Below are positions 280-50,865 of a stretch of 64,000 nucleotides of DNA, one piece after another. Each line of letters begins with the position of its first letter. The stretch's first letter is position 1. Under the pieces are notes generated by a model. The model did no database searches and was not told the origin of the DNA. It was given only the letters and a program-made list of their open reading frames with translations. The stretch comes from Frankia sp. QA3 (GTDB lineage Bacteria > Actinomycetota > Actinomycetes > Frankiales > Frankiaceae), in contig NZ_CM001489.1 of NCBI RefSeq assembly GCF_000262465.1, positions 2,662,597-2,726,596 on the forward strand. The letters are read 5' to 3'. Made by a program: the position numbers and the translations under genes.

Positions 280-584
280 GAATCCTCCCGGGTTCTCGGC
301 GTGCGCCGCACGCGTGCCCGGCGGCGAGATACCCGGGTCCTGATCGGCGACACGGCATCGGGGCCCTTGGCGCACTGTGCATCGATCACCGTCAACGACA
401 CGTCAACGAATCCGGACCGAGGCTGATGGCCGTGTGACGTCCTGGAGACGCCGGTGCGCGCACCGTACTGCCTTGGCGGGCGCAGGACTGCCTTGGCGGG
501 CGCAGGCCACGTGACCGATCCGCCCGCGGCTCGTAGGGCACGGCCGACCGTTGACACCGCGTGAACGACCCGAAGGAGGTTCGA
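280..584. promoter_or_regulatory. divergent intergenic region upstream of the contractile-tail operon
   Basis: This 305-bp spacer lies between the small minus-strand gene and the first tail gene and should hold the promoters of both. It contains the 20-bp tandem duplication listed separately. The only consensus-like hexamer is TTGACA at 551-556, too close to the ribosome binding site (AAGGAGG at 574-580) to serve the sheath gene. I see no other convincing -10/-35 pair. Confidence 0.4.
467..506. repeat. perfect 20-bp tandem duplication
   Basis: ACTGCCTTGGCGGGCGCAGG occurs at 467-486 and again without a gap at 487-506. It lies about 80 bp upstream of the sheath start codon, so it may be a duplicated regulator-binding site or a recent slippage event. 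Confidence 0.85.
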
Positions 585-5316: not shown

Positions 5317-6336
5317 ATGTTGACGCTGGGCCACACCCTCGTCCTCGGGGGCCGGGAGTTCACCTCCCACGCCGTGCACGTGCGCTGCGAGCGGGCCGTC
5401 GCACCCGGTGTCGGGCGGCTGCGGGTGCGGTTGCCCTACGTCGGCGGCCTGCCTGCCGCCGTCGGCGACGACGTCCGCCTCGATCTCGACAGTGGCGACG
5501 TCGCGGCCGGTTCGGCCACCGTGTTCACCGGGACGATCACGGCGCTTCGGCACGGCCCGGCCGGGGTGGACGTGCATGCCGGTGACGCGTCCTGGGCGCT
5601 GGCGCACTACCGGCCCGCGATCACCTACGAGGGACAGACCGCGGGCGGTGTGGTGGGCGCGCTCGCCGGGGAAGCCGGCGCGAGCACCGCCACGCTGGAC
5701 GACGGGCCGACCCTGCCGGCGTACGTCGCCGACGGCGCCACCACCGGCTGGGAGCACATCGCCCGCCTCGCCGCCTGGTCAGGCGCCGACGCGTACGTGA
5801 CCGCCGACGGCGACGTCACCCTCCGAGCCCGGGACGCGTCGTCGGTCGATGCCGCGCTGCGCTGGGGCCGCGAGGTGCTCGCCGCCGGCTCGACCGATGC
5901 TCCGCTGCCGGCCTCCGGTGTGGCCGACGCGGGCGAGGGACCCGGGCCGGCCGACGACCGTCCCGGCGCCTTCCGGTTCACCGCCACCGGCGCGCCGCCC
6001 GCCGCGCCCGTCGCCGTCCGGTACCGCCCCGGCCTGCGGGCCACCGATGTCACCAGGGTTGCCACCACGAGCTGGATGACCCGCGAGGCGACCCGCCGCC
6101 GTCCGATCGAGCTCCTGACGTTCCTGCTGCCGGCCCTCGGCCCCGGCGACCTCGTGGAGGTCCGGGACGCACCGGTCCCGCTGTCGTTGCTGCAGGTCAG
6201 GAGAGTCGAGCATCGGGTGGACGCGGCGGGCGCCCGGACTCGGATCGTGGCTCGGGCCGGCGCTGGCTCCGACCTGCTCGGCCAGCTCGGCAGCCTGCTC
6301 GGCAACCCCGCGGGAGCTGTTGGAGGTCTGTTGTGA
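5317..6336 (+). CDS. baseplate hub protein (gpD / gp27-like)
   Basis: Predicted trimeric hub that adapts the six-fold tube to the three-fold spike (phage late control gene D family, equivalent to the N-terminal part of VgrG). 339 residues, ATG at 5317. Two barrel-like regions are suggested by strands around residues 10-85 (LRVRLPYV, FTGTITALRH) and 190-310. They flank a helical part containing TAGGVVGALAGEAG and the WEHIARLAAWSGADAYV segment that is characteristic of gpD proteins. The C-terminus is Gly/Leu rich. It overlaps the spike gene by four bases. Hub and spike are separate genes here, as in P2 phage, rather than fused as in VgrG or Afp8. Confidence 0.8.
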   Translation: MLTLGHTLVLGGREFTSHAVHVRCERAVAPGVGRLRVRLPYVGGLPAAVGDDVRLDLDSGDVAAGSATVFTGTITALRHGPAGVDVHAGDASWALAHYRPAITYEGQTAGGVVGALAGEAGASTATLDDGPTLPAYVADGATTGWEHIARLAAWSGADAYVTADGDVTLRARDASSVDAALRWGREVLAAGSTDAPLPASGVADAGEGPGPADDRPGAFRFTATGAPPAAPVAVRYRPGLRATDVTRVATTSWMTREATRRRPIELLTFLLPALGPGDLVEVRDAPVPLSLLQVRRVEHRVDAAGARTRIVARAGAGSDLLGQLGSLLGNPAGAVGGLL

Positions 6337-7022
6337 CCAGACTGGCAGAGGCGGTCACGGCACTGGCCCGGCACGAGGTGGCGCGGCTGCGGGTCTGCGA
6401 GATCGGCATCGTCCGCTCCGTCTACTCCGCGGCGACCGGCGATCCCGGCGCCGACCACGCCTGCGGGGTGGAGCTGCGCGACACCGGTCTGGTGCTGCCC
6501 CGTGTCCCGGTCGCCGTCGGGGTCACCGGCGCCGCGTCCCTCCCGCGGGTCGGCGACCTGGTGGCCGTGATCTTCGCCGGCGGCGACCTGCACGCGCCGA
6601 TCGTCATCGGCCGGCTCTACCACGACGGCCTCGAGCCGCCGGAGCACGCCGCGCAGGAGAGCGTCGTCCGGCTGCCCGCGGGCGAGAGTGACTCGACGGC
6701 GCGCCTGGACGTCGTCGCAACCGCGCCATCGGCGTCCGGTCGCCTCCTCACGATCGGCCTGGACGGCGACGTCCCGGTCCAGGTGCGGATCGCGCCCGCC
6801 GAGGTGGTCGTCACCGTCGGCGACGCCCGCCTGTCGTTGCGGCAGCCGGGTGGCGGACCCGGCCGCGCGACGCTCAAGGTCGCCGACTGCCAGGTCGACC
6901 TCGACGGCAACGGCGACGTCACCGTCCAGGCGAGCGGGACCCTGACACTCAAGGGCCGGACGGTGAAGATCGCCGGCGACACCCAGGTGACCGTCAAGGG
7001 CCAGACCGTGGAGCTGAACTGA
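6333..7022 (+). CDS. spike / baseplate assembly protein V
   Basis: Predicted central spike with an N-terminal OB-fold (gpV / gp5 family) and a C-terminal beta-helix. GTG at 6333 overlaps the hub stop and is preceded by GGAGG. Residues 20-105 hold the OB-fold pattern: IGIVRSVY, then LRDTGLVLPRVPVAVGVTG, then LPRVGDLVAVIFAGGD and APIVIGRLYHDG. The last segment is the classic VgrG/gpV signature. Residues 150-229 are short repeating beta strands (VQASGTLTLKGRTVKI, DTQVTVKGQTVELN) that should form the needle. It is followed two bases later by the PAAR gene, which would cap the tip. Confidence 0.88.
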   Translation: MTRLAEAVTALARHEVARLRVCEIGIVRSVYSAATGDPGADHACGVELRDTGLVLPRVPVAVGVTGAASLPRVGDLVAVIFAGGDLHAPIVIGRLYHDGLEPPEHAAQESVVRLPAGESDSTARLDVVATAPSASGRLLTIGLDGDVPVQVRIAPAEVVVTVGDARLSLRQPGGGPGRATLKVADCQVDLDGNGDVTVQASGTLTLKGRTVKIAGDTQVTVKGQTVELN

Positions 7023-7023
7023 G

Positions 7024-7425
7024 ATGGCCGGGCAGCCCGCGGCCGCGAAGGACAACCGGGTGGTGGCCGTCGACACGCACATCGTGATGGTTCCCTCGCC
7101 GTCCGGCGTCACCCCGCTGCCCCTGCCGCACAGCTTCAGCGGCGTGCTGGACGGTGGCCTGGTCAGCACCGTGACGATCGGCGGGCAGGCCGCCGCGGTC
7201 GTGGGCTCTACCGCGTCGAACACCCCGGCGCACGTCCCGACGCCCCCCGGAGCGTCGTTCCAACGGCCGCCGTCGGACAAGGCCACGGTGCAGGTCGGCT
7301 CGGCGACCGTGACGATCGGCGGGAAGGCCGCCGCCCGCAACGGCGACGTAGCCATCACGTGCAACGACCCGGCCGACCTGCCGGCCGGTACGGTCCTCGC
7401 AGCCGGGACGGTGATGGTCGGATGA
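7024..7425 (+). CDS. PAAR-type spike tip protein
   Basis: 133 residues, ATG at 7024. The sequence alternates short strands with conserved prolines, glycines and histidines in the PAAR pattern: VVAVDTHIVMVPSPSG, LPLPHSFSGVLD, VTIGGQAAAVVGS, VTIGGKAAARNGDVAITC. The His and Cys residues (His22, His40 region, the final Cys) are candidates for the zinc site that holds the cone. PAAR proteins sharpen the spike and can carry cargo, but this one has no extension beyond the cone, so cargo must be attached another way. The stop overlaps the gp25 gene start (ATGA). Confidence 0.8.
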   Translation: MAGQPAAAKDNRVVAVDTHIVMVPSPSGVTPLPLPHSFSGVLDGGLVSTVTIGGQAAAVVGSTASNTPAHVPTPPGASFQRPPSDKATVQVGSATVTIGGKAAARNGDVAITCNDPADLPAGTVLAAGTVMVG

Positions 7426-7935: not shown

Positions 7936-9645
7936 GTGTTCACCGCGCGCACCTACCCCGACATCGTCGCCGAGGTCCTCGTCGCGGTGACGCAGGGAGT
8001 CGTCGGCGACGTGCTCACCGTGCCCGGCGTCGTCCCGGACGGGCACCTGTTCTTCCTGCCCCGCCGGCCGGTGCGGCGGCTTTCGCTCGTGTCCGGTGTG
8101 GTCGAGGCGCCGGACGGCTCGACGACGCCGTGGCGGTTCACCGACGCCGACTGGGAACTGGTCAGCTCCACCGGGAGGCCCGAGGAGCTCGACGCCCTGC
8201 GGTTTCGCCCCCGCCGCCCGCGCCCGGCCGGTGGGTCGGTGCTGCGGGTGAGTTACTGGCCGCGCGACGTCCCGGCGGTGCCGCTCACCGACCTCGGCGT
8301 GGGCTCCGTGACCCGCACGCTGCTGGAGACGCTGGCCCGGGAGATCGCCGACGCCGAGGCCCAGCTACAGATCGTCTACGACTCGGCGTTCGTGGACACC
8401 GCCGAGGGCCGGGCTCTGGACCGGGTCGTGGCCCTGCTCGGCATCGAGCGCCGGCAGGCCGACGTCCCGGTCGGCAAGGTCCGCCTCCTGCGGCGTCCCG
8501 GCACGGCCGGGCTCGTCACGGTCCCGGTCGGCACCGTCGTGATGTCCGCGCAGGGGGCGCGCTACCTCACCACTCGGGAGGCGACGCTGCGGGCCGGTGA
8601 GTCGTCCGTGGAGGTCGGCGTCGCCGGCGAGGCCCGGACGACGCCGCTCGTGGGGGTGGGCGAGCTGGAGCGGCCGGCGCTGTCGCTGGCCGGCGTCGAT
8701 CGCGTCACCAACGAGGCGCCCACCTTCCAGCCGACCGGCCCGGAGGAGGACGACGCCCTGCGTGCCCGCGCCCGGCGCGCCTTCCACGGCGTCGGCCTCG
8801 GCACGCTGGACGCGCTCACGCACGGCCTCGGCGGCCTGGACGGCGTGACCGGCGTCCAGGTCACGGAGTTCCCCGACGGCAAGCCCGGCACCATCGCCGT
8901 GGACGTCGCTCTCACCGATCCGGACGACCCGGACGCCGTGGCGGCGGTGGCGGCCACGATCGAGCGGCTGCGCCCCGCCGGCATCCGGATAGTCTGGCAG
9001 TCCGCGGCCCAGGTCGAGGTCGTCGTCGACGTCACCCGGCTCGTCCTGACCGGCGGCAATCGGCCGGTGGCCGAGCTGGAGGACGTCCGCGCCGGGCTGA
9101 CCCGGCGGCTCACGACCGCGATCTCCGAACTGCCGCCCGGTGGCCGGCTGGCCGCGCCGCGCGTCGCCGCCCTGGCGCTCGCCGACGACCGTATCGCCGA
9201 CCTCGACCTCACCTTCACCCTCGACGGCGAGGCAGGCCGGGCCGAGGTCGCGCTGCCGGCCGGGAAGTCCGCGCACCCGGTCACGCCGATCGCGTTGCCG
9301 CCGCCGCGGTACACCGACGTCGGGGCGCCCGGTCCGCAGGTCCGGCTGCAGGTGCGGGTGATCGGGCCGGTGCAGCTGATCGGCACCACGACGCTCGCCG
9401 CCGCGACGGACGCGATCCGGACCCGGACCCTGGCCTGGCTCGCGGCGGCGACCCTGCTGGACTTCACCGCGTTCGCCGCGGCGGTCCGGGACGACACCGC
9501 CTACGCGCTGGTGCTCGAGGAGGTCGCCGTCGTGCTGGAGCGCGACGGCCGCTTCGAGCAGCTCGTGCTCGGCTCGCCGTCCCGGCCGGTGGACGCCCGG
9601 GAACGCCCGAAGCTGGCCGGCGTCGAGCTGGGGGCGCGGTCGTGA
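7936..9645 (+). CDS. baseplate protein J-like
   Basis: Predicted main wedge protein of the baseplate (gpJ / gp6 / TssF-like). 569 residues, GTG at 7936. The N-terminal 160 residues are beta-rich. Around residues 145-260 lie the typical J features: a long helix ending VDTAEGRALDRVVALLGIERRQ, then strands with a GTAGLVTVPVGTVV turn. From residue 255 come NEAPTFQPTGPEEDDALRAR and the GLGTLDALTHGLGGLDGVTGVQV segment seen in J proteins (the 'RA...G..T..ALE..L..V.GV..V' pattern). The C-terminal third has more beta structure. It overlaps the next gene by four bases, and its order with gp25 matches other contractile systems. Confidence 0.85.
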   Translation: MFTARTYPDIVAEVLVAVTQGVVGDVLTVPGVVPDGHLFFLPRRPVRRLSLVSGVVEAPDGSTTPWRFTDADWELVSSTGRPEELDALRFRPRRPRPAGGSVLRVSYWPRDVPAVPLTDLGVGSVTRTLLETLAREIADAEAQLQIVYDSAFVDTAEGRALDRVVALLGIERRQADVPVGKVRLLRRPGTAGLVTVPVGTVVMSAQGARYLTTREATLRAGESSVEVGVAGEARTTPLVGVGELERPALSLAGVDRVTNEAPTFQPTGPEEDDALRARARRAFHGVGLGTLDALTHGLGGLDGVTGVQVTEFPDGKPGTIAVDVALTDPDDPDAVAAVAATIERLRPAGIRIVWQSAAQVEVVVDVTRLVLTGGNRPVAELEDVRAGLTRRLTTAISELPPGGRLAAPRVAALALADDRIADLDLTFTLDGEAGRAEVALPAGKSAHPVTPIALPPPRYTDVGAPGPQVRLQVRVIGPVQLIGTTTLAAATDAIRTRTLAWLAAATLLDFTAFAAAVRDDTAYALVLEEVAVVLERDGRFEQLVLGSPSRPVDARERPKLAGVELGARS

Positions 9646-15017: not shown

Positions 15018-16729
15018 CGGTGCGGACGTTCCCGCCGGCGGGCCGCTTCCCCGCCCTGTCGACAGGTGCGCCGGTCGACGTGGAGTTCCCGGCCGAGGGC
15101 GGCACGGTCCCGCTGCGCCTCACCTTGACCGCCGCCGCCCCCGTCGCCGACGCCACCGGCACGACCCGGCTCGGTGTCGACCTCGACCTGGTGTCGCTGA
15201 CGATCAAGCCGCTCGATCACGAGGTGGCGGTGCCGGTCCCGCCGACGATCGGCAAGGTGCTCGCGGCCGACCTCGACATCGACCAGGAGGTACGCCGGGT
15301 CCGGATCTTCGACCTCTCCCTGCCCCGTCACGGCGACACGCTGTACGCCTTCGCCGACGGCGACGTGCGGGTCGAAACGCCGCGTCAGGACGGTGATCCG
15401 CAGGCGCGCACGTCGGTCCGGGCGGTGCTGTCGGCCGGGCCTCGCGGTGCCCAGGCCACGCCGCCGACGCGCGGGTTCCCGGGCTTCGGGCCGCCGGATG
15501 CGGCCCGGCTCTACGGGGACCAGCTGCCCTGCGGCAGTACCAGGGGCACCCCGGCTCAGATCACCCTGGACTGCGGGGCGCCGGTCCGTGGCGGCCGGGT
15601 GGAGCTACGGTTCTGCACCGGGGACGACCCGCTGCACCTCGCCCCCGTCACGGTGAGCGCCCGGGCCGAGGTCGTGCGCTCGGCGCCGCCGCGTGGGCTG
15701 CGGCTCACGGTCGGGCCGGCGAGCTCACCGGTCCTCGCCTGGCAGCACGACCCGCCGCTCACGGCCCCGGACGCGGTCGAGCTGGTGCCGGTGCTCGGCG
15801 CCCTGCTGGACAAGGCGGCTTCCGCTCCCGGGCCTGTCACCGTCGACGCCTCGCTCACGTGTGCCGTGGCCGCGAAGGTGCGGCTGGTGTTGTCCACTCG
15901 CGGTGCCGCCCGCACCCGCGGGCGGTACCAGGACGACCCGGCCCGGGTCGCGCTGGCCGGTGCCGGAGGTGTCCTGGCCGCGGGCGTCGTCGGCGACCCG
16001 GTCGCCGCCACCGCGACCGCACGGCTGACGGGCAGCGCCGGCCCGGTCCGGCGCACCGCGGCGTCACCGTCGCCGCTGGCCGACCCAGCCCGCACGGGCA
16101 CCGTCGTCACCGACACCCGGTACGTCGCCCGGCGGCTGGACGCCACGGCGCTGGAGGCGCGGCCGCTGGTCCGGGTCGGGGTTCTGGCCGCGGCGGTCGC
16201 CGGCGAGCTGGTGGTGGAGCTGCGCGCCGACGCGGGCGGCCCGGGTCCGGTGCTCGCCCCGGGCGGGGTCACCGCCGTGAACACGCACGCGGTGCCCGCC
16301 TGGTGGACCGTCGAGATCCCGCCGTTGCGGCCGGGCGCCGTGCCGGCGGCGGGCTGCTGGATCGTGGCCCGCACGAATGCGGGCCGTCTGCTGTGGGCCG
16401 ACGGGGATCCGCCGGGCGAGACGATGACGAGCGAGGACGGCGGGCGCAGCTGGTATCCGGCGCAGGGCCGGTCCCCCGCCCTGGCGCTGTTCGTCGACGA
16501 TCCGGGTGGCGCCGTCCCGCCGCTGCTCGCCCGGATCGGCACCGTCACCTCAGCGTTGCTGCCCGAACCCGGCGCCGCCTTCGACTCCGTCGTCACCTGG
16601 CCGGCCGAACTGCGCCAGGCCCTGCCCACCGCGGCGGCCGCGCACCTGGACTGCGCCCGTGACCTGCGGCTCGAGGTCGTCGACCTGCGTGTCTCCTGGA
16701 CCGCCACGCTGTCGCTGGGGAGGGCCTGA
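15014..16729 (+). CDS. large beta-rich tail-operon protein, 571 aa, unknown
   Basis: ATG at 15014 overlaps the previous stop (ATGA). Nearly the whole chain is predicted beta strand separated by proline/glycine turns. It contains pairs of cysteines (LPCGST and TLDCGAP near residues 175-190, RFCTGDD near 200), and a C-terminal region with WWTVEIPPLRPGAVPAAGCW followed by an SEDGGRSWYPA loop that resembles jelly-roll or lectin-like sandwiches. That would fit an adhesin or fibre tip domain. I do not recognise the family. Its stop and the next start share one base (TGATG). Confidence 0.55.
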   Translation: MTVRTFPPAGRFPALSTGAPVDVEFPAEGGTVPLRLTLTAAAPVADATGTTRLGVDLDLVSLTIKPLDHEVAVPVPPTIGKVLAADLDIDQEVRRVRIFDLSLPRHGDTLYAFADGDVRVETPRQDGDPQARTSVRAVLSAGPRGAQATPPTRGFPGFGPPDAARLYGDQLPCGSTRGTPAQITLDCGAPVRGGRVELRFCTGDDPLHLAPVTVSARAEVVRSAPPRGLRLTVGPASSPVLAWQHDPPLTAPDAVELVPVLGALLDKAASAPGPVTVDASLTCAVAAKVRLVLSTRGAARTRGRYQDDPARVALAGAGGVLAAGVVGDPVAATATARLTGSAGPVRRTAASPSPLADPARTGTVVTDTRYVARRLDATALEARPLVRVGVLAAAVAGELVVELRADAGGPGPVLAPGGVTAVNTHAVPAWWTVEIPPLRPGAVPAAGCWIVARTNAGRLLWADGDPPGETMTSEDGGRSWYPAQGRSPALALFVDDPGGAVPPLLARIGTVTSALLPEPGAAFDSVVTWPAELRQALPTAAAAHLDCARDLRLEVVDLRVSWTATLSLGRA

Positions 16730-19700
16730 TGAATCTCGCCGCCGACGTGCGCGTCTCCCTCGACCTGAGCACGCCCGTAGGTGCGGCCAAGGGCACGCTG
16801 CTGGCCCACCTCGACACCGACGCCGTGCTCAACGCTCTCGTCAGCGGCGACGCCGCCACCCTGGCCACCGGCGATCTCGGCATCGCGCTGGCGGACCTCG
16901 GCAGCGGTCTGTTGGCCTCGCCGGAGACCCTGCTCGGGCCGTTGGAGGAGGCGTTGAGCCAGCTCGCCGGCGAGCTGGATCTCGGGCCCCTCGGCAAGCT
17001 CGGCGACCTGCTCGACACCCTCGAGGTCGTGGGCCGGGTCGCCGAGCGGGTCATCGCCCTGACCGCGCCGGGCGTCGCGCCGTTCGACCTCGGCTCGGCC
17101 TCGGCCGGCGGCGGGTTCGGCCTGACCGGCTCACCGCTGCCCTCGATCATCGGCGGGTCGTTCGGCGACGTCGTCAATCTGGTGCTGGACAACGTGGATC
17201 TGCCGAACCGGCTCGCGCCGGTCGGGAAACTGCGTGCCGCCGTGGACGCGGTCGACGGGCTGGTGCTGACCGGTGACGCCGCCGCCGTCCTCGAGGCACT
17301 CGCCCCGCTGCTGCTTCCCCTGCCGCTGCCGGCGCTGCGGCAGCTACGCGCGCACCTGGACCTGTTCGACGCCCGCCTCGACCGCGTCCCCGCACCGGAT
17401 GCGTTGCTCGCCGCGCTCGACGGCTGGTCCGTCGCGCTGGACGCCGTCGCCTCGCTGGCAACGCCCACGCCCCAGGCGCTCGCGGACCTGGCCCGCGCGC
17501 GAGACGCGGCCTCCGCCGCGCTCGACGCCCAGGTCACCGGCCTCGACGCCTGGCTGGACGGGTTCGGCTGTGGCACCTGGACCGCCGAGCTGCGCCGCCA
17601 GCTCGGCCTGCTGCCCGCCGTCCCGGCTGTCCGGATCGACGCGCTTACCCGTGACCTCGCCGCCGACATCGGCCAGGTCCGGGCCATCATGGCAGCGGCC
17701 GGCGACCAGGCGATCCTGGACGGCGTTGGCCGGTTCGCCGCCCAGGCGCACGCGTTCGTGGAAGCCACGCTCGGCGGCATTCCGGTGCTGCTGGATTCGG
17801 CCGAGGAACGGGTCAGGGAGCTGTTGTCGCAGCTGCCGACGCATGCCTTCCGGGCCGGGCTGGTCCAGTCGGTGGACGACGTGATCGACCGGATCGACGG
17901 CCTCGGCATCGACGCGGTCCCGCGGGCCGTCGAGGACGCGGTCGCGCAGCTACGCTCCGTGGTGCAGGGGGACGTCGTCGGCCGGGTGCGGGCCGCCGTC
18001 GGCGGCGTGGTCTCCGACGTGCGGGACGCCGTCGGCGAGCTCGAGCGACTGCTGGACGACGTCACCGGGGCGCTCGACACCGCGGTCGGCGCGGTGACGC
18101 CCGTGCTCGCCCGGGTGCGGGCCGCCGTCTCGGGCTTCACGGGCGAGATCGACGCGGTGGTCAGGCTGCGCGGCGAGATCGACCTGCCCGGGGCCGCGCA
18201 ACGCGGCGTCGACGCCGTCACCGAGCTGGCCGATGCCGTGCAGGGCCTGCTCGGCGGCGGCGTCGTCCCGGACGCGCTGCGGCCCGTGCTCGAGCAGGCC
18301 GCGGACGCGCTGGCGAGCGTCGACCTGAAGGCGATCCTGACGGAGCCCGCGTCCCAGGCCGTGGCCGACCTGAGGATCGAGCTGCCGGACGACGTCACCG
18401 ACCTGCTCGCGGACGTCGCCGCCCTGCTGCGGGACGCGCTGCCGCTCGCCCTCATCGCCGAGCTGGACGCGCCCGTGCTCCGGGTGTCGAGGGCGCTGGC
18501 GGACTTCGACCCGGTGTCGCTGCTGTCGGGGGTCTCGCACGCCCTCAGCGACGCCGCCGGGACGGTCGAGTCGCTCGATCCGCGCCCGCATGTGTCCGGC
18601 GCCGAGGAGGTGTTCCAGGAGGTCCTGGCGCGGCTGGACCGGCTCGACCCCATCCGGCTGCTGGCGCCGGTGGCCGGTGTCTACGACGATCTGCTCGGCA
18701 AGCTCGGCGGCGTCGACCTGCAGGGGGTCGGCGACCGGATGCTCTCCGGGTTCGAGGCCGCCGGCGCGCCGTTACAGGAGGTCGTGACGACGGCGGCGCG
18801 CCGGCTCGCCAGTGAGGCGAAGACGCCACCGGCCGGCGGCACCCCGCCGCCGGCCGTGCCGGGCGACCCGGCGCCGCCCGCCGACCGGCCGGCGGCGCTG
18901 TTCCGCCCCGGCGATGGGATCCGCGCTCTCGGGGCCGTGCTGGACCGGGTCCGGGTCGCGTTGGCGCCCGTCGACGACGCCGTCCTGGTACCGGTGTTCC
19001 GGGAGCTGCACGCGCTGACCGTGGGGCTCGCGGTCCGCGCGGTGCCCGAGGACCTGCACGGCCGCCTCGTGACCGCGTTCGACCGGGCGCTGGCGCCGGC
19101 GCGGTTGGAGGCATCGCTGCCACCGGCGGTGCGGCTGCGTGCGGCCTGGGACCGCGCGTCGGCCCGGCACGGCCTGGACGTCGCGCTGTCCCCGGCCGTC
19201 CTCTTCGATGCCCGGACGACGGCGGCCCGGGCGCTGAGGGCGCGGGTGGATGACTGCACCGGCGACCTGGTCGCGATCGGCGGGCAGCTGTCCGCGTTCT
19301 GCTCCGGTGTCCTCGCCGCGATCCCCGGGGCGCTGGCCGAGGAGGTCACCGGTCGCGGGCCGATCGACGCCTTCCTCACCCAGCTCGACCCGGAACCGGT
19401 GGCCGCCGCCCTCGACGCCCTGGCGCAGGAGGCGGCCGAACGACTGCTCGCCGTCGGCGACGCCCTCGCCCAGGCGCTGGAGAGCCTGCGGGCGGACATC
19501 GAGGCGCGCCTGGTCACCCTCGGCCCGTCGGCGATCATGGAGCGGCTGGCCCGTCTGCTCCTGCTGTTCCGACAGGAGCTGGACCGGATGCACCCGGCCG
19601 AGATCGGCCGCGACCTGCGCCCGCTGTTCCTCGCCGTCCGCGGCCGGATCGAGGCGTGGTCACCGGTGGCGCTGGCCGGGCGGGTGGCCGAGGCGCTGGT

Positions 19701-20031
19701 GGTCGTCGCCGACGCGCTGCGAGCCCTCGACCCGGTGGTGCTGCTCGGCGACCTGTCCGATCTCGACGGCCTCGCCGAGCGCGTCGCCGGCCTGGCCCCC
19801 GGACGGCGGCTGCGTCCGCTCGCCGACCAGCTCGGCGAGCTCGGTGAGCAGCTCGCCGGCCTCGACATCGAGGCGAGTGTCACGGTGATCACCGACGCGG
19901 CGGCCGAGATCCTCACGGAGCTGTCCGCGGCCGTGGACGTCGTCCTCGACAAGCTGGCGGATCTGCTCCGCTCGCTCGGCTCGAGCGCCGACGTCTCGGT
20001 GACCATCGACGTGGGGGTGTCCGTCCGATGA
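16729..20031 (+). CDS. 1,100-residue all-helical protein, tape-measure candidate
   Basis: ATG at 16729 overlaps the upstream TGA by one base. The sequence is almost continuously helical, rich in Leu, Ala, Val and Asp, with recurring 25-40-residue segments of the type LVQSVDDVIDRIDGLGIDAV and VRAAVGGVVSDVRDAVGELERLL. A proline-rich hinge at about residues 700-730 (PPAGGTPPPAVPGDPAPPAD) divides it into two arms. No enzymatic motif or signal peptide is visible. Contractile systems need a tape measure, and no other gene in the operon suits the role. At about 1.5 A rise per residue it would specify a tube on the order of 150 nm. The weakness is that a tape measure normally lacks a central proline hinge, so a filamentous scaffold remains possible. 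Confidence 0.6.
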   Translation: MNLAADVRVSLDLSTPVGAAKGTLLAHLDTDAVLNALVSGDAATLATGDLGIALADLGSGLLASPETLLGPLEEALSQLAGELDLGPLGKLGDLLDTLEVVGRVAERVIALTAPGVAPFDLGSASAGGGFGLTGSPLPSIIGGSFGDVVNLVLDNVDLPNRLAPVGKLRAAVDAVDGLVLTGDAAAVLEALAPLLLPLPLPALRQLRAHLDLFDARLDRVPAPDALLAALDGWSVALDAVASLATPTPQALADLARARDAASAALDAQVTGLDAWLDGFGCGTWTAELRRQLGLLPAVPAVRIDALTRDLAADIGQVRAIMAAAGDQAILDGVGRFAAQAHAFVEATLGGIPVLLDSAEERVRELLSQLPTHAFRAGLVQSVDDVIDRIDGLGIDAVPRAVEDAVAQLRSVVQGDVVGRVRAAVGGVVSDVRDAVGELERLLDDVTGALDTAVGAVTPVLARVRAAVSGFTGEIDAVVRLRGEIDLPGAAQRGVDAVTELADAVQGLLGGGVVPDALRPVLEQAADALASVDLKAILTEPASQAVADLRIELPDDVTDLLADVAALLRDALPLALIAELDAPVLRVSRALADFDPVSLLSGVSHALSDAAGTVESLDPRPHVSGAEEVFQEVLARLDRLDPIRLLAPVAGVYDDLLGKLGGVDLQGVGDRMLSGFEAAGAPLQEVVTTAARRLASEAKTPPAGGTPPPAVPGDPAPPADRPAALFRPGDGIRALGAVLDRVRVALAPVDDAVLVPVFRELHALTVGLAVRAVPEDLHGRLVTAFDRALAPARLEASLPPAVRLRAAWDRASARHGLDVALSPAVLFDARTTAARALRARVDDCTGDLVAIGGQLSAFCSGVLAAIPGALAEEVTGRGPIDAFLTQLDPEPVAAALDALAQEAAERLLAVGDALAQALESLRADIEARLVTLGPSAIMERLARLLLLFRQELDRMHPAEIGRDLRPLFLAVRGRIEAWSPVALAGRVAEALVVVADALRALDPVVLLGDLSDLDGLAERVAGLAPGRRLRPLADQLGELGEQLAGLDIEASVTVITDAAAEILTELSAAVDVVLDKLADLLRSLGSSADVSVTIDVGVSVR

Positions 20032-23000
20032 CGATCCCCGCCCAGGCCCCACCGCTCACGGAGCTCACCGTCGTCCGGGACGGCGATGGCCGCGCTGTCG
20101 CGCTCGAAGGGGACGGCGTGCGGCACCACCGCCGGGACGACGAGGGTGGCTGGACCGTCATCGACGACCCCGCCGGTGCGACCAGCCTGCGGCAGGACGA
20201 GTACCGCACTGAGCTGCTGCGCGACGGTCACCTCCTGGCGCAGCGCCGGGCGGGCGACGCGGAGGAGTGGACGGTGCCGGGCACGCCGCAGCCGGTCCGG
20301 ATCGAACGGGACCCGCAGGGCCAGGTCTGCCTGGTGCTGGTCGGTGACCGGGTCGTCGCTCGGCGCGCGGACGGCGCCACGGCCCGGGTGCTGCGGTGGG
20401 CGAGTGGGGACGTCGGGCACGGCCCCGAGGGTCTGTTCGCCGCCGGGCCGCGCCAGAGGTCCCGACTCGAGTGGGCGGCGCGCGCCGAAGGGGGCACCCT
20501 CACGCTCGGCCGCGACAGCTATCGGTTCGACGCCGAGGGCCGGGTCGTCGAGCACCGCCATCCCTGGCTTGGCGCCACCCGGTACGCGTTCGCCGGCCGG
20601 GAGCTGGCCGCGGTCGACACCCCGGACGGGCGGGTCGAGCTGCACCACAGCGCGGACGGCCGGGTCCGGGTGCGCCGGGACACGAGCGGCCGGACGACGT
20701 ACGGCTACGACGAGGCCGGCCGCCGGGTGCGCGAGACCGGACCGTCCGGTGTCCGCCGCCTGGAGTGGGACGGGCTCGACCGGCTCGTCGCCGTCGCCGA
20801 CGAGGGATGGACGGTCCGCTACGGATACGACGGCTTCGGTCGTCGGGTGCGGCGGACGCTGGAGGGAGCCGCCGGCACCGACGTCCGGCTCGAGCATCGG
20901 GACCTGCAGGGGCGGCTCTGGTCCGTCACCGACGCCGGCGGCCGGGCCCTGCGCACCTTCGTCTGGGACCGGCACAGGTGCCTGGCGGCGTTCGACGGAC
21001 CGGCGAGCGGCGCCCCACCAGCGGCCGTGTACGTGACCGCGCCCAGCGGCGTCCCGGTGGGCTTGATCGACGCGGCGGGTGACGTGCGCGACCTGCCGGC
21101 CACGCCGTACGGAGAGTACCGGTCGGCCGACCACCCGGCGCTGTGGTTCCACCTCGCCGACGAGCGCACCGGCTACGTGCACCTGACCCAGCGGGACGCG
21201 GATCCGGCCACCTGGCAGTTCCTTTCGGCGGATCCGTACCACGGCGACGACGCCGCGGACGATCGGCGGCGGCTGCTGCTTGGTCTGGACGGCCCGCTGC
21301 CGCACGAGCGCGACGACCGGACGACGCCGTACGCCGTGTGCGGGTTCGACCCGGTCCGCCGTGTCGACCCGAACGGCGCGATTTCCGCCGGCACGGTGCT
21401 GTGGCAGATCTTCGGCGGCCTGACCTGGCATCTTCCGGCACACACGATCAACTGGCTCTGGATCCACCCGTTCGTGAACCTGTCGTTCGCGTCGATCCTC
21501 GCCTGGCTCCCGGCGGCGGGCTTCGACCCGCGCGGCGCCTACGACTCGTGGTGGGAGTTCTGGCTGCCGTCGAACTACAGCTTCGAGGAGTCCAAGCGGC
21601 AGGACATCGGGGCTGAGCTGATGGCCGGCTGGATGTCGTCCAACCGTACGTTCACGTTCCAGAACGCGATCTGGGGGCGCAGGCGGGAGTGGGAGACACT
21701 CGGCAACGTCGCGAGTCTGCAGCCGTCAACCCCCTACGCGCAGCAGCGGCCGGGGTCGCTGCTGCGGATCAGCCGCGGCGACAGCAGAGCCGCCGACGCC
21801 GTCGACGCGTGGACGATGGTCGCGGACGGGATCGACACGCGAGCGGCGGCGACCAGGCAGTACGACGTCGCCGGCGGTACCGACCACGAGGCGATCCTCG
21901 GCAGCGGCCGCGAGCGGCTCCTGACCGGCGGGAACCTGCACGTCTTCCGGCAGATCAGGAGCGCCGGCGTCAGCCTGCCGGGCACCGACCCGGCGGCACC
22001 GGCAGCCGGTCCGATCGCGATGCACTCGCGGGCGACGGCCGTCCAGGAATGCGCTCCCGGGGCGGCCTGCGCGCTGGTGACCCTGCGCACCACCGCCCAG
22101 GTGTTCACCTACTCCGGCACGGACGCGGCGACGGCGGACGGCGACGTGATCCGGCTCGGGGGCGTGCTGACGATGGTGACCGCGGTCCAGGTCAACGGTG
22201 CCGGCACCCCCAGGACGGCGACCGAGATGTCCGTGCAGCCCGGCAACCAGACCGTCACCCTGCCGGTGCCGGGCGACTACCGGGCCCAGTGGGCGAGCCT
22301 GGATCCGGCCGGCGCGCAGAGCCTCGGCTCCCTGTCCGGGGACACCACGCGCCTGCAGTTGCCGGACTCGGCGGTGGCCTGGACGCCGAACAGCATCGCC
22401 CGGTTGGACGGCGTCGCCCTGGCGCCGGTCGACGCGGTCGAGAGCCATCTGCCGGTGAACGCGCAGGTGACGCTGACCGCCGGGTCGGCCGTGGTCGCGT
22501 TGGGGGCGCCGGTGCGGGTCGCGGCCGCACTGGAGCCGGACGAGCGGCTGCGGGTCGCCGACAACGCCGTGGGTCAGGGTGTGGTGCTGCTGCTTGCCCG
22601 CGGTGGTGGCGTCCGGCTTGCGCGCGTGACGGCGGTGGCGGACGACGATCTGAACCACCAGGATCTGCTCACCCTCGACGCAACCCCGACGGCCCTCGGC
22701 CTGCCGGGCGCCGGCGACCCCCTGGTCGACATTGTGACCGCCGGGCCATCGCGGGGCACCCTGGCGGCGAACGTCCCGCCAGGCGCGGGTGACGCCGTGA
22801 CGAACCTGGCCGTCAACGCGTCGCTCGGCGCCAACGTGGTGGGTCTCGACGTGGGCGGCGCGCTCGCGACCGTGACCGGGGCCGAGACCCGCGCCCTCCA
22901 CCTGACCATCGCGAACCCGGTGGGCGGCGCCGGCCCGTGGAACGTCGAGCGCTTCACCTTCCCGGCCGGCGCCCGCACGCACGACGGCGCGCTGTCCGGC

Positions 23001-26000
23001 CCGCTGGAGATCGTCCGGTTCACGGCGGGGGACGGTGCGGCGACGATCGCGTCGGACGCCCTGCTTCGGCTGCGCGCGGTCACGGTTCCGGCGGCGGTGC
23101 CCGCGGTGGCCGGCCTGGTCCGGGTCGGTGACCACGAGTTCACCCGGCCCTCACCGGACCCCACGCTGGCCGCCGGCGACCTGCTCGCCGTCCAGGGCAC
23201 CCGGACGGACGTCGTGTCCGTGGCCGATCTCGCGATCACAGTGACCCTCGACCGACTGGTCGGCGCGCCCGGGGACCACGTCCGCCGCGTCTGCGCCTTG
23301 GTGAACGGGGAACGGCTCTACGACGCCGTCCGGGTTGACACCACCGTCCGGCTCACCGGCACGACAGGCATCACCAACCCGGCGTTGCTGCCGGACTGGG
23401 TGGCCGGCGACATCGTGCAGATCTCGATCGGCGGCACCACGCAGGAATGGGTCCTCGACGCCGCCCCGGACGGCGGGCGGCTGGCGCTGCGCAACGGGCC
23501 GGGCGTCATCCCAGGAGTCGCCGGCGCGATCGGGACAGTGCGGCGACTGGCACCGATCTGGCCGCCCCTGGCCCGCGAGGTGACGGACCCCGCCCGCATC
23601 TCCACGGTGCTCGCGCAGGTTCCACGGCCCGCGGCACCGGGGACGCTGGTCTCCCAGCACGTCTGGATCACCGGCACCGGCGCGCTGACGGGTGCCGTCG
23701 GGCTGGAGATCAACGGCACCGTGTTCGTCGCGCGGGTCGACGCCGTGAACGCGCTCTCGGTCCGCTCCTCGACGCTGCCGCCGGGACCGCTGGCCGGCTA
23801 CGTGCGGCTGGCGGCGTCGTCGGCGTCGGATCGGATCAGCGCGCGCTGGCATCTGATCGGTGACGAGATCCGGATCGACGACCAGGCCGCGCCGACCCCG
23901 GCGGGTGGCCCGACGGTGGTCCTCGATGCCCTGGCCCCGATCGCGCAGAGCGCGGTCACGCCCAAGGAACAAGCCCTCATGCTCCCGGCCGAACCCGAGA
24001 ACGAAGCGTGGATCCTCACCGCCCGGCAGGCCCTGCGCGAGCACGAGTTGCGGCACACGATCCAGGCGTCGAGGTGGGGGCCGATGTTCCTCGGCCTGCC
24101 GCTTGGCATCGTCGGCGACGCGCTGTGGGACCTGCGCGGTGGGTCCGGGTCCTTCGAGTCGTCGCCGTTCGAGACGGTGAGGCCGCTGCCGGAGGAGACC
24201 ACCGGCGACCGGCCCCGCCCGGCGGGCTTCCGGCTCACGGCGCCGACCGGGCAGTTCCGGCTGGGCGTCGGCGAGGTGGTCGAGTTCGAGCTCGACGGCA
24301 GGGCGTGGCGGACCGTGATCATCGCCGTCGACCAGGGCGACGGGGGGAAGTTCTGGGTGCGCAACCTGCCCCCGGACGGGCTCGGCGAGGCAACGGCGCG
24401 GGCCCGGACCCTGCATCACACCGAGCCCCAGGGCGATGCCTGGCTCAAGATCTTCAGGATTCTGGACCTTCTCACGAACGCGCACATCATGGAGTTCTCG
24501 ACGGGTCTGATCTGGGAGGGCCTGATCGGCCTGTTCTGGCGGGCCGGGCGCCTCATGGACTTCAAGCTGACCTCCAGCGTGGACGTCACGGTGACGGACG
24601 CCGGGCGGGTCACCCTGCACGCCGCCGACGAGGCGGCGTTGGCCAAGCTGCACCTGGACGTCGGCGGCGAGGTGATCGTCGACAGTGACGCCGCGCGGGA
24701 CGACTCCACCCGGACCGTCGTCACCGGCCTGCTCGGCGCCGACGTGACGGTGCGCGACGCCGTCCCGCGCTACCCGGGTGGCGCCCGGATCCGGCTGTGG
24801 CGCGGCCAGGGCAAGGACCCGGACGACGTCTGGGACCTGCGCACCTACCGGCCGGCCACGCTGGAAGCCGGTGCCGCGGACGTGATCTCGGTTCCCGGTG
24901 ACGCGCCCGGGTTCCGCCCGCTCGACGTCCTGGTGCTGAAGTGGACCGGCTCGACCGGGACCAGACACTCGCTGACCACCCGGGTGACCACCGCGCTCGA
25001 CGGTGCCCCGCCGCGGTACAGGCTGGCCGACGCGATCGATCTCGACGGCGCCGACCCCGACACGCTGCGGCTGTCTCGGCTGCGTGACGACGACGACCCC
25101 GCCACGCAATGGTTCGACACCGGCTTCTACGAGACCCCGATCCGGATCCGCCGCGTCACCCGGTACCTCTTCGACCCATGGCGGGCCTTCACCCTCGGCA
25201 CCGAGTTCACGCAGCCGGCGGACGGCTCGACGTTCAAGACCGTGCTGGCCTGGATCGCGCGCGGCGTCCGCTACGCGGTGTCGAACCGCACCTGGACGCC
25301 GCTGTTCGGATACGTCTGGTGGACAAGCATTTTCGGTCGGGACTCGAACAGCGGGCTGGAGCAGTCCGCCTCCTGGAACGGTGGCGATCTCTACTCGACC
25401 ATCACCCGCAGCGGCGACCCGCGGTTCGCCGCGTCCGAGGGCGGCCATGGTGATGAGCCGGGAAGCTACGGAATTTTCGAAGGCGAGCTGCTGCGGATGT
25501 GGACCTGGGAGTCCTGGCGCTGGAATGACGTGTTCGCCAGCATCGAGGCCATCGGGGGTTCGCCGGTCAGGCCGGTGTACGCCTCGGGCACGCACACGGC
25601 GACGCAGAACCCGGCACTGATCAGCGCGGCGTCGCCGGTCACGCCGTGGGACGATCGCTGGCGGTTCACGCCCCCGACCGGGCTGGTGACCGGGTTGGAA
25701 TACCCGGCGGAACTGGCGCAGAGCTCGACCACCGGCGCGGTCGCGGGGTTTCGCCCCTCACCCCTGCTGCAGATTCCCACCCGGGCCGATGTGGCCCGCA
25801 ACAGCGGTGTCTACTTCGTGGCCTGCCAGGCGGGAGCGTGGCGGGTCGGCGTCGCGAAGCCGACCGGCATCGACACCGCCGCGCAGGGGGCAGGCGCCCA
25901 GTACCACACCCGCACGGTCCAGGTCGGCGCGCTGACCGTCACCGCGGGCGGCACGAACCTGCCGTGGCAGCCGCCCGGTGCGGCCGCGGCGCTCACGCTG

Positions 26001-26867
26001 TTCCTCACCCAGGAACTGCCGGTCGACGTGACCGGCGGGAACGGCGGGACCTACCGGTTGCGGCTGCTCGACCCCCAGGCGGGCACCGTCGTCAACCAGA
26101 CCGCGGACCTCAGCCTGCGGGCCCGCATCATCACGGGCACGACCGAAACCGTCGAGGTGGTCAGGGTTTATCGGCCCGACGACCCCTGTTTCGCCCGGTT
26201 CGGCACGTACCTGGCCCAGCCGATCGCCATCCCGGTGCGGCGGTTCGGCGTCACCGTCACCGACACCATCACGCTCCGGAACGGTCCCGACCCGACGTCC
26301 CCGGTGGCGAGCCCCGGTGCGCCCGTGCGGCCGGGTGCCGCCCTCTCGGCGCTGCTGCCGGTGACGACGTCGGCCCTGCCGACGGTCGCCTTCGCCGGAC
26401 CGCCTCCCGTCGGTGCGCCGCCGCTGCCGGTCGTCACCGGGCCGTCGCCGGCGGGGAACCTGAACCGGTATCAGATCGCGGTCGATCCGCAGCCGCCGGA
26501 GCAGTCGGTGACGTTGCGGGTCACGTTCCGGTTCGCCGACCCGAACCCGGCGGGCGGCGGGGCGACGCGGGACGTCGTCACGTCCTTCGACGTCCAGCCG
26601 GCGGCAACCCTGTCCGGCCCGGCCCTGGTGGGTCCAGGAGCCACGGTGCTGCTCACCGTCGTCCCGTCGGACGGGGCGGCTCTGGTCGCCGCCGATGTCA
26701 CCCTGCCATCGGGGGCGGATGTCCCGGTGGCAGGTGTGACCGTGTCGGTGACGGCCGCGGGTGAGCTGCGGGTCGCGGCCGGGGCGGGGGCGCCACCGGG
26801 AACGCCGTTCCTCGTCCGGGCCCTATGGAAGGGCCAACCGGCGCGATCCTCGATGGCGATCGGCTGA
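20028..26867 (+). CDS. giant RHS/YD-repeat protein with HExxH metallopeptidase-like region
   Basis: 2,279 residues, ATG at 20028 overlapping the previous stop, last gene of the operon. Residues 150-300 carry YD repeats (YGYDEAGRRVRE, WDGLDRLVAV, YGYDGFGRRVRR). Residues 350-450 are the RHS-associated core (TPYGEYRS, FLSADPYHGDD, RRVDPNG at 446-450). In ordinary RHS toxins a short toxin follows the DPxG point; here about 1,830 residues follow. That tail begins with an aromatic/hydrophobic stretch (residues 455-500). It contains many Ig-like beta segments and an EHELRHTIQASRWGPMF segment with His1339-Glu1340-His1343. This arrangement resembles the HEYGHxxQSxxxGPLYL element of RHS-linked zinc peptidase-like domains. 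Near 1758-1834 lies a Trp-rich region (WTPLFGYVWWTSIFGRD). I infer that it is the cargo or receptor-binding effector of the injection apparatus. No N-terminal PAAR or signal peptide is present. Confidence 0.8.
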   Translation: MTIPAQAPPLTELTVVRDGDGRAVALEGDGVRHHRRDDEGGWTVIDDPAGATSLRQDEYRTELLRDGHLLAQRRAGDAEEWTVPGTPQPVRIERDPQGQVCLVLVGDRVVARRADGATARVLRWASGDVGHGPEGLFAAGPRQRSRLEWAARAEGGTLTLGRDSYRFDAEGRVVEHRHPWLGATRYAFAGRELAAVDTPDGRVELHHSADGRVRVRRDTSGRTTYGYDEAGRRVRETGPSGVRRLEWDGLDRLVAVADEGWTVRYGYDGFGRRVRRTLEGAAGTDVRLEHRDLQGRLWSVTDAGGRALRTFVWDRHRCLAAFDGPASGAPPAAVYVTAPSGVPVGLIDAAGDVRDLPATPYGEYRSADHPALWFHLADERTGYVHLTQRDADPATWQFLSADPYHGDDAADDRRRLLLGLDGPLPHERDDRTTPYAVCGFDPVRRVDPNGAISAGTVLWQIFGGLTWHLPAHTINWLWIHPFVNLSFASILAWLPAAGFDPRGAYDSWWEFWLPSNYSFEESKRQDIGAELMAGWMSSNRTFTFQNAIWGRRREWETLGNVASLQPSTPYAQQRPGSLLRISRGDSRAADAVDAWTMVADGIDTRAAATRQYDVAGGTDHEAILGSGRERLLTGGNLHVFRQIRSAGVSLPGTDPAAPAAGPIAMHSRATAVQECAPGAACALVTLRTTAQVFTYSGTDAATADGDVIRLGGVLTMVTAVQVNGAGTPRTATEMSVQPGNQTVTLPVPGDYRAQWASLDPAGAQSLGSLSGDTTRLQLPDSAVAWTPNSIARLDGVALAPVDAVESHLPVNAQVTLTAGSAVVALGAPVRVAAALEPDERLRVADNAVGQGVVLLLARGGGVRLARVTAVADDDLNHQDLLTLDATPTALGLPGAGDPLVDIVTAGPSRGTLAANVPPGAGDAVTNLAVNASLGANVVGLDVGGALATVTGAETRALHLTIANPVGGAGPWNVERFTFPAGARTHDGALSGPLEIVRFTAGDGAATIASDALLRLRAVTVPAAVPAVAGLVRVGDHEFTRPSPDPTLAAGDLLAVQGTRTDVVSVADLAITVTLDRLVGAPGDHVRRVCALVNGERLYDAVRVDTTVRLTGTTGITNPALLPDWVAGDIVQISIGGTTQEWVLDAAPDGGRLALRNGPGVIPGVAGAIGTVRRLAPIWPPLAREVTDPARISTVLAQVPRPAAPGTLVSQHVWITGTGALTGAVGLEINGTVFVARVDAVNALSVRSSTLPPGPLAGYVRLAASSASDRISARWHLIGDEIRIDDQAAPTPAGGPTVVLDALAPIAQSAVTPKEQALMLPAEPENEAWILTARQALREHELRHTIQASRWGPMFLGLPLGIVGDALWDLRGGSGSFESSPFETVRPLPEETTGDRPRPAGFRLTAPTGQFRLGVGEVVEFELDGRAWRTVIIAVDQGDGGKFWVRNLPPDGLGEATARARTLHHTEPQGDAWLKIFRILDLLTNAHIMEFSTGLIWEGLIGLFWRAGRLMDFKLTSSVDVTVTDAGRVTLHAADEAALAKLHLDVGGEVIVDSDAARDDSTRTVVTGLLGADVTVRDAVPRYPGGARIRLWRGQGKDPDDVWDLRTYRPATLEAGAADVISVPGDAPGFRPLDVLVLKWTGSTGTRHSLTTRVTTALDGAPPRYRLADAIDLDGADPDTLRLSRLRDDDDPATQWFDTGFYETPIRIRRVTRYLFDPWRAFTLGTEFTQPADGSTFKTVLAWIARGVRYAVSNRTWTPLFGYVWWTSIFGRDSNSGLEQSASWNGGDLYSTITRSGDPRFAASEGGHGDEPGSYGIFEGELLRMWTWESWRWNDVFASIEAIGGSPVRPVYASGTHTATQNPALISAASPVTPWDDRWRFTPPTGLVTGLEYPAELAQSSTTGAVAGFRPSPLLQIPTRADVARNSGVYFVACQAGAWRVGVAKPTGIDTAAQGAGAQYHTRTVQVGALTVTAGGTNLPWQPPGAAAALTLFLTQELPVDVTGGNGGTYRLRLLDPQAGTVVNQTADLSLRARIITGTTETVEVVRVYRPDDPCFARFGTYLAQPIAIPVRRFGVTVTDTITLRNGPDPTSPVASPGAPVRPGAALSALLPVTTSALPTVAFAGPPPVGAPPLPVVTGPSPAGNLNRYQIAVDPQPPEQSVTLRVTFRFADPNPAGGGATRDVVTSFDVQPAATLSGPALVGPGATVLLTVVPSDGAALVAADVTLPSGADVPVAGVTVSVTAAGELRVAAGAGAPPGTPFLVRALWKGQPARSSMAIG

Positions 26868-50562: not shown

Positions 50563-50778
50563 CCGCACCTCCCCACCAGCCTGACCCACGACTACCGGCT
50601 GCAGACACCGGCGGCTCTGCGGCGAGTCAAGGTCGCCGGATGCCTCCACAAACAGCGAAGCCATCCAGTTCCCATCATCCCCTTCGACCGACTGGGAAGT
50701 AATCAGAGCATTACAGGCCGCGCCTGTCGCCAGCCGGACACCCGCGGGCGGCGCCGGCGCTGCGAGGCGACCGACGGC

Positions 50779-50865
50779 CATCGTCCGCGACCACTACGAG
50801 CTCGGTACCGACGTCGACCCGCGGCTGCGGCTGGCAGCCGCGTTCACCGAACTCGCCCACGCCGT
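50779..50865 (+). pseudogene. IS6-family transposase C-terminal fragment
   Basis: The plus strand encodes VRDHYELGTDVDPRLRLAAA followed by FTELAHAV, matching the C-terminal end of IS6 transposases and the copies at 26,936 and 56,308. Only about 29 codons remain. It sits just upstream of the kinase-STAND gene. Confidence 0.6.

What the first reader, a model, noticed from the sequence alone, without database searches (positions are those of the whole stretch)
20028..26867. RHS protein carrying a 1,830-residue extension with a metallopeptidase-like HELRH motif
RHS toxins usually end 100-200 residues after the core. Here the extension is four times longer than the RHS part. It contains HELRHTIQ...GPMF (His1339, Glu1340, His1343), resembling RHS-linked zinc-peptidase-like elements, plus Ig-like and Trp-rich regions. 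Its place as last gene of the tail operon suggests cargo delivered by the needle.
Basis: partly seen in the sequence, partly recalled or inferred. Interest (0 to 1): 0.8.

Follow-up and report, generated by a model that had tools for sequence, protein, structure and literature searches.

The report
Giant RHS protein with zincin-like domain
The last gene of a phage-tail-like injection operon encodes a 2,279-residue RHS protein whose very long tail contains an intact metal-peptidase-like signature, probably related to a marker domain of injected effectors; most of the tail stays unassigned and no activity has been shown.

Summary
In detail: 20028-26867 encodes 2,279 residues, an RHS part ending in DPNG (447-450), then 1,829 residues with one HExxH (HELRH, 1339-1343), at the end of an operon with sheath, spike, PAAR and baseplate matches. 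No library profile matched the tail. Relatives place residues ~1325-1385 in a family of small zincin-like proteins: a profile built without the window scores 30 bits there, at most 4.5 in 500 shuffled copies. A Glu aligned with E1382 is kept in 33 of 33 picked relatives, giving the HExxHxxQ-E signature of the eCIS_core/PVC-metallopeptidase domain; Pfam's eCIS_core model itself does not match the window. One unnamed actinobacterial genome encodes a compact RHS version with the domain directly after the core. In the window a matching WxLP segment follows the core but HELRH comes about 870 residues later, so the domain may be split by a long insertion; that is suggestive only. Zinc binding, catalysis and delivery are unproven; no fold match was significant; 'Ig-like' was not confirmed. 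A new variant of a known kind.

The parts
20028..26867 (+). RHS protein with giant extension, 2,279 aa
20028..21377 (+). RHS part, residues 1-450, ending in DPNG (447-450)
   Evidence: PF05593 2.4e-13; YD repeats and sub-threshold Rhs_assc_core; 17 of the 20 PDB chains listed are RHS, Tse15 or teneurin chains over residues 185-402, best E 6.7e-8
21378..21707 (+). Residues 451-560: possible N-terminal piece of the zincin-like domain (WHLP 467-470; FTFQNAIWG 542-550)
   Evidence: BLAST to compact RHS relative L133, 37.5% over 64 columns (window 435-498), E 6e-6, 16 of them RHS core; the piece alone is not significant, 245 of 1000 shuffles reach it
21708..23927 (+). Residues 561-1300: low-aromatic stretch, unassigned, possible insertion
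   Evidence: no family match; composition; weak hints of repeated modules
23928..24197 (+). Residues 1301-1390: zincin-like piece with HELRHTIQASRWGP and SPFE
   Evidence: profile without window: 30.0 bits at 1332-1382 vs top shuffle 4.5; alignment; model pLDDT 79-92 at 1325-1384
24042..24065 (+). HELRHTIQ, residues 1339-1346
24171..24173 (+). E1382, candidate third metal ligand
   Evidence: aligned with the Glu of 33 of 33 picked relatives; end of profile match
24198..26864 (+). Residues 1391-2279: unassigned C-terminal part; a strand group predicted at 1417-1447 (pLDDT about 48-73); Trp-rich 1701-1900
16729..20031 (+). Preceding gene, 1,100 aa, overlaps the RHS start by 4 bp; only weak hits, one to a phage baseplate hub family (E 0.0077)
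561..2876 (+). Sheath (Phage_sheath_1C, E 1.6e-6)
5317..7425 (+). VgrG-related hub (5317-6336, below cut-off), spike Phage_base_V (6333-7022), PAAR (7024-7425)
7936..9645 (+). Baseplate_J, E 3.7e-15

Best explanation
The protein is a cargo or accessory protein of this phage-tail-like contractile injection system. An RHS part is followed by a very long variable tail containing a zincin-like (gluzincin-type) domain, a remote relative of the eCIS_core/PVC-metallopeptidase domain, with H1339, H1343 and E1382 as metal ligands and E1340 as catalytic base. Most likely the domain binds zinc and cleaves a protein, either a target after injection or the carrier protein itself. Shown by sequence: the RHS part, the operon context, the motif and its family, the conserved Glu. 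Inferred: zinc binding, catalysis, loading into the particle, injection.
For: CIS-like operon with the gene overlapping its end. Profile of 22 relatives, window left out, 30.0 bits at 1332-1382; best of 500 shuffles 4.5. H, E, H, Q, G and the later Glu invariant in 34 aligned rows. Best local score of window 1300-1400 to the C-terminal half of the compact RHS relative 61, reached by none of 1000 shuffles (max 49). That relative is an RHS protein with the domain directly after DPDG. Of 18 proteins scanned with Pfam, one passes the eCIS_core cut-off (L092, 27.6 vs 22) and seven match it below the cut-off. Family profile (window row included) against two canonical eCIS_core proteins: probability 57%, E 1.1e-4. 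L126, a compact relative, folds with pLDDT 86.4 and pTM 0.83, HExxH in helix 102-138 and the Glu in the next helix 146-155. Literature: PVC-metallopeptidase has an HExxHxxQ-E signature and also occurs after RHS repeats (PMC3482391 section 13); VgrG2b's C-terminal domain, whose orthologues are classed as DUF4157, binds zinc through two His and a Glu 44 residues on, and mutating the His abolishes toxicity (PMC6899460 passages). Here the spacing is 39.
Against: Pfam eCIS_core does not match the window, and pairwise similarity to the two canonical eCIS_core proteins of the same genome is no better than shuffles (191 and 309 of 1000; with the motif kept in place 503 and 698 of 1000; best whole-protein alignments lie elsewhere). 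Ten of the 18 proteins scanned had no eCIS_core match. Foldseek found nothing with E<=0.001 for either model: for L126, 36 weak matches led by unrelated proteins, 10 of them zinc aminopeptidase-type entries at E 2.3-9.8; for the window model, none of the 50 listed of 173 is a zinc peptidase. A PDB sequence search with the family profile found nothing. In one eCIS effector, growth inhibition did not depend on the motif (PMC11297309 passage). No close homologue of the extension was found in what was searched, so constraint on this very protein cannot be measured. The aligned relatives were found through the motif. The domain is a small part of the extension, whose main function may be something else.
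Confidence: 0.5

Rival explanations
1. The domain is a non-catalytic docking or loading module that ties the protein to the spike or baseplate, as proposed for DUF4157; activity, if any, lies elsewhere in the extension.
For: In S. lividans the DUF4157 protein Sle2 interacts with a CIS core component and is associated with cargo Sle1 (PMC13277306 abstract and passages); a chaperone role is suggested and one effector acts independently of its motif (PMC11297309 passages). The gene sits in the operon.
Against: HExxH, Gln and Glu are all intact although docking alone would not need them. The compact RHS relative carries the domain at the toxin position.
Confidence: 0.25
2. The protein is a structural or adhesive part of the particle (fibre-like or surface protein), with the zincin remnant of no catalytic importance.
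For: Size, aromatic-poor stretch 561-1300, Trp-rich patches, weak hints of repeated modules, no toxin family match.
Against: RHS core end and compact RHS-zincin relative point to the polymorphic-toxin layout.
Confidence: 0.2
3. HELRH is a chance motif and the extension has no metal site.
For: No close homologues of the extension found; no significant fold match.
Against: Match extends well beyond HExxH to RWGP and SPFE and far exceeds shuffles.
Confidence: 0.05

Closest known systems
eCIS_core / DUF4157 / PVC-metallopeptidase (PF13699)
   Same: HExxHxxQ followed by a Glu; associated with contractile injection systems; 8 of 18 scanned proteins match its Pfam model, one above the cut-off; profile comparison covers the strand and the start of the HExxH helix
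   Different: The window does not match the Pfam model; it adds a GP-containing segment after the helix; it lies deep inside the protein, not at the N-terminus
VgrG2b C-terminal metallopeptidase of the Pseudomonas T6SS (PMC6899460, passages read)
   Same: HExxH plus a Glu 44 residues after the second His (39 here); carried by an injection-system protein
   Different: No sequence match in the PDB search with the family profile; carrier is VgrG, not RHS; a small ORF follows its homologues, while here no + strand ORF of 80 aa or more starts within 500 bases downstream (shorter ones not examined)
RHS polymorphic toxins with metallopeptidase ends (PMC3482391, section 13 and passages read)
   Same: RHS repeats followed by an HExxH domain
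   Different: Extension of 1,829 residues; domain possibly interrupted, and followed by about 890 further residues
Compact RHS-zincin of an unnamed actinobacterial genome, L133
   Same: Core end, WxLP segment, HELRH, GP, FE in the same order
   Different: Domain is contiguous, about 170 residues, and ends the protein

Membership tests
RHS proteins | RHS/YD repeats | tested here: met
   PF05593 50.5 bits vs cut-off 22; TIGR01643 44.7 vs 15.8
RHS proteins | Rhs-associated core with DPxG end | tested here: inconclusive
   TIGR03696 16.4 bits vs cut-off 32.5; DPNG end seen in sequence and aligned with L133
eCIS_core (PF13699) | Score over Pfam cut-off | tested here: not met
   no match; not filed as a member
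eCIS_core / PVC-metallopeptidase | HExxHxxQ-E signature | tested here: met
   HELRHTIQ 1339-1346 and E1382; signature
Small zincin-like family (HExxHxxQ....GP...E) | Profile match over shuffles, window left out | tested here: met
   30.0 bits vs 4.5; selection of relatives through the motif is a caveat
Small zincin-like family | N-terminal WxLP segment and edge strand before HExxH | tested here: inconclusive
   WHLP at 467-470 after the core; N-half profiles find nothing there; shuffles 245/1000, and 1336/5000 for the first 30 residues
Gluzincins, MA(E) | Zinc bound by two His and Glu; catalysis | not testable with these tools
   coordinates of the models were not available, no distances measured
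Contractile injection system cargo | Encoded in a CIS operon | tested here: met
Contractile injection system cargo | Physically loaded and released | not testable with these tools
   needs particle preparation

The most novel reading that the evidence does not exclude
A split metallopeptidase: the toxin domain starts right after the RHS core (WHLP at 467-470, candidate edge strand FTFQNAIWG at 542-550) and is completed by the HExxH and Glu helices at 1339-1382, with about 790 residues inserted between edge strand and active-site helix and about 890 more appended. The inserted part would gate, aim or carry the peptidase. A degenerate second copy at about 1692-1790 (AFTLG ... LEQSAS) is also not excluded (E 0.047 in one profile for 1692-1726).
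Probability: 0.3. Interest if true: 0.7.

Novelty: new variant of a known kind. Interest (0 to 1): 0.5.

Why it matters
The role of the HExxH marker domain in CIS effectors is described as open in the papers whose passages I read. A natural RHS protein with an intact signature, beside a compact RHS relative, gives a direct comparison: is the domain a peptidase toxin, a self-processing enzyme or a docking part? It also shows that library searches can miss the domain when it is divergent or interrupted.

Tried and rejected
Close homologues of the extension: none found. Whole protein: phages and viral contigs none; plasmids 19 records, all within query residues 91-503, the RHS part and a little beyond. 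Residues 1203-1534: plasmids, viral contigs. Residues 1693-1871: viral contigs, plasmids. Residues 1303-1524: 0 of 57 other genomes and 0 of 295 other genomes of the class. Residues 1318-1871: first genome-contig scan. A 58-aa piece gave four noise hits in plasmids and two chance HPPK hits in the PDB. The contig scans rely on six exact 8-mers, so their reach is short.

Syntenic genes: three other genomes of 296 match the baseplate-J protein. In L007 a later gene, 15268-17388, is not RHS-like (weak Het-C); I read three of its ORFs. In L008 the contig ends about 2 kb past the J gene, so the operon end is not visible; the 1,447-aa gene I read (OmpA, PG_binding_1, an HEIGH motif) lies upstream of J. 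In L009 I only listed ORFs. So the comparison of operon ends rests on one genome.

GLEQSAS (1776-1782) as third ligand: set aside for E1382, which the family alignment supports. Direct homology to canonical eCIS_core by pairwise score: not significant. N-half of the family in the window: profiles put nothing at 451-560 and a weak match at 1710-1726. Repeated modules: eight anchors chosen by eye, leave-one-out; four were reached by at most 18 of 500 shuffles, four by 85 or more, so not claimed. More RHS-fused relatives: in 66 genomes of the class of L133's genome 20 match its end (E<=0.001), but only that genome itself over the whole query; the others match from query residue 125 or later.

Literature searches: in their listings and in the passages I read I saw no RHS protein with a zincin domain split in this way; only these searches of the open library support that.
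Full report
What is there. The ORF 20028-26867 (+) encodes 2,279 residues and overlaps the stop of the preceding gene by 4 bases. It is the last gene of a run that includes a sheath C-terminal domain, a spike, PAAR and Baseplate_J over their Pfam cut-offs, and a VgrG-related match below its cut-off. A gene with a BTAD regulator domain lies upstream on the other strand (L010:14713-15579). The genome is a 7.59 Mb single contig. The phylum is inferred to be Actinomycetota: L108, from a genome listed as same phylum, has the same 210-aa ORF as L129, whose record is titled Actinomycetota.

RHS part. PF05593 and YD repeats match clearly, the associated core only below its cut-off; 17 of the 20 PDB chains listed are RHS, Tse15 or teneurin chains, the other three unrelated at E above 0.6. 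The core ends in VDPNG at 446-450. The remaining 1,829 residues match nothing in Pfam or NCBIfam or, for the pieces tested (1203-1534 and 1525-2279), PHROGs.

The motif and its family. A search of viral contigs for HExxHTxQxxxxGP gave 83 stretches; reading them in frame showed that most belong to a real small-protein family. For a first profile I dropped 13 loci (the window's own two, seven judged chance and four of another peptidase type) and those with under 60 residues before the motif, leaving 64, of which 59 distinct. A profile made from the window piece and eight of these matched 96 of 396 genomes of the phylum at E<=0.01, the window's own included. I read 13 of those loci. In 12 the domain is at or near the C-terminal end of a frame whose upstream part often looks like read-through, with the form WAxP...TLGHV...HELxHxRQxERWGPLF...NPFExAAR or variants of it; the thirteenth, L133, is an RHS protein. 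A second scan of genome contigs with a four-row alignment gave four loci from 253 pattern matches: an unclassified bacterium, Herminiimonas sp., an Oxalobacteraceae bacterium and an Actinomycetota bacterium, each a small stand-alone ORF of 156-210 aa.

Strength of the match. A profile of 22 relatives without the window scores 30.0 bits at 1332-1382; of 500 locally shuffled copies 178 were scored at all, the best 4.5. The match runs from the residues before HELRH through RWGP to the Glu of SPFE. In a 34-row alignment (window and 33 relatives that I picked from the 64 viral-contig loci and the four genome loci) H1339, E1340, H1343, Q1346, G1351 and E1382 are invariant. Caveat: the 29 viral-contig rows were selected for HExxHTxQ and GP, and the four genome rows by a pattern covering HExxHxxQ, so invariance of those positions is partly by construction; E1382 was not part of any pattern.

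Relation to eCIS_core. The PVC-metallopeptidase signature is HExxHxxQ-E (PMC3482391 section 13). Of 18 proteins scanned with Pfam, one (L092) passes the eCIS_core cut-off, seven match it below the cut-off and ten do not match (one of these, L016, is of another type). Profile comparison of the family, window row included, with the two canonical eCIS_core proteins of the window's own genome gives probability 57% and E 1.1e-4. Against: the window does not match the Pfam model, and pairwise scores to those two proteins are reached by 191 and 309 of 1000 shuffles, 503 and 698 when the motif is kept in place. So I treat it as a remote relative, not a filed member. The two canonical copies lie elsewhere in the genome, at 3000729-3000962 and 1163145-1163345.

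A compact RHS relative. BLAST aligns its core end and the next 47 residues with window 435-498 (37.5%, E 6e-6) and its HELRH segment with 1334-1355 (59%, E 3e-4). The C-terminal half scores 61, above all of 1000 shuffles. The N-terminal half alone does not stand out (245 of 1000; the first 30 residues after the core, 1336 of 5000). Thus the C-terminal half is secure, while the idea that the window domain begins right after the core and is split by a long insertion rests on position (WxLP at almost the same offset, seen after the fact) and is only suggestive. A strand shortly before HELRH (AVTPKEQALML, 1309-1319) is the alternative and would make the domain contiguous. In 66 genomes of that relative's class no second RHS-fused copy was evident: 20 match, only the genome itself over the whole query.

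Structure. The window fragment 1235-1520, with 33 relatives, gave mean pLDDT 57.3; the confident stretch is 1325-1384 (block means 79-92): a helix 1323-1350 with HELRH and short helices, E1382 in the last. The compact relative L126 gave pLDDT 86.4, pTM 0.83, with two helices carrying HExxH and Glu and a small sheet. Neither had a significant PDB match. I could not measure metal-site distances.

Function. In VgrG2b, a domain whose orthologues are classed as DUF4157 binds zinc through two His and a Glu, and mutating the His abolishes periplasmic toxicity, although no substrate was found (PMC6899460 passages). In contrast, for another eCIS effector the motif was dispensable and a chaperone role was suggested (PMC11297309 passages), and Sle2 of S. 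lividans interacts with a CIS core component (PMC13277306 abstract and passages). Linkers beyond 1000 residues between DUF4157 and toxin domains are reported (PMC8213781 passages). I therefore favour a metal-dependent peptidase cargo at 0.5, a docking role at 0.25, a structural role at 0.2 and chance at 0.05.

Verdict. A true and reasonably unusual protein, a new variant of a known kind, with most of its length still unexplained.

Noticed in passing
window 45634-50781 (-): 1,715-aa protein with a kinase domain (PF00069, 5e-32) and NB-ARC (5.1e-20), a STAND-type kinase layout.
   Followed up: no
window 16729-20031 (+): 1,100-aa protein just before the RHS gene with no confident family match; weak hit to a phage baseplate-hub family in PHROGs (E 0.0077).
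   Followed up: no
L007:15268-17388: A related tail operon in another genome of the genus carries, later in the run, a non-RHS 706-aa protein with a weak Het-C match, which may be different cargo.
   Followed up: partly
L008:6574-10917 (-): 1,447-aa protein with OmpA and PG_binding_1 domains and an HEIGH motif, upstream of a baseplate-J relative.
   Followed up: no
G000 C1:3000729-3000962 and 1163145-1163345 (L130, L131): Two canonical eCIS_core proteins in the same genome, far from this operon.
   Followed up: partly
many Actinobacteria, e.g. L097, L100, L102, L126-L129: A widespread small zincin-like family; of those scanned most reach no library cut-off.
   Followed up: partly
window 22080-23930 and 24210-25100: Possible repeated small beta modules (GDxVxI...); leave-one-out support weak.
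   Followed up: partly
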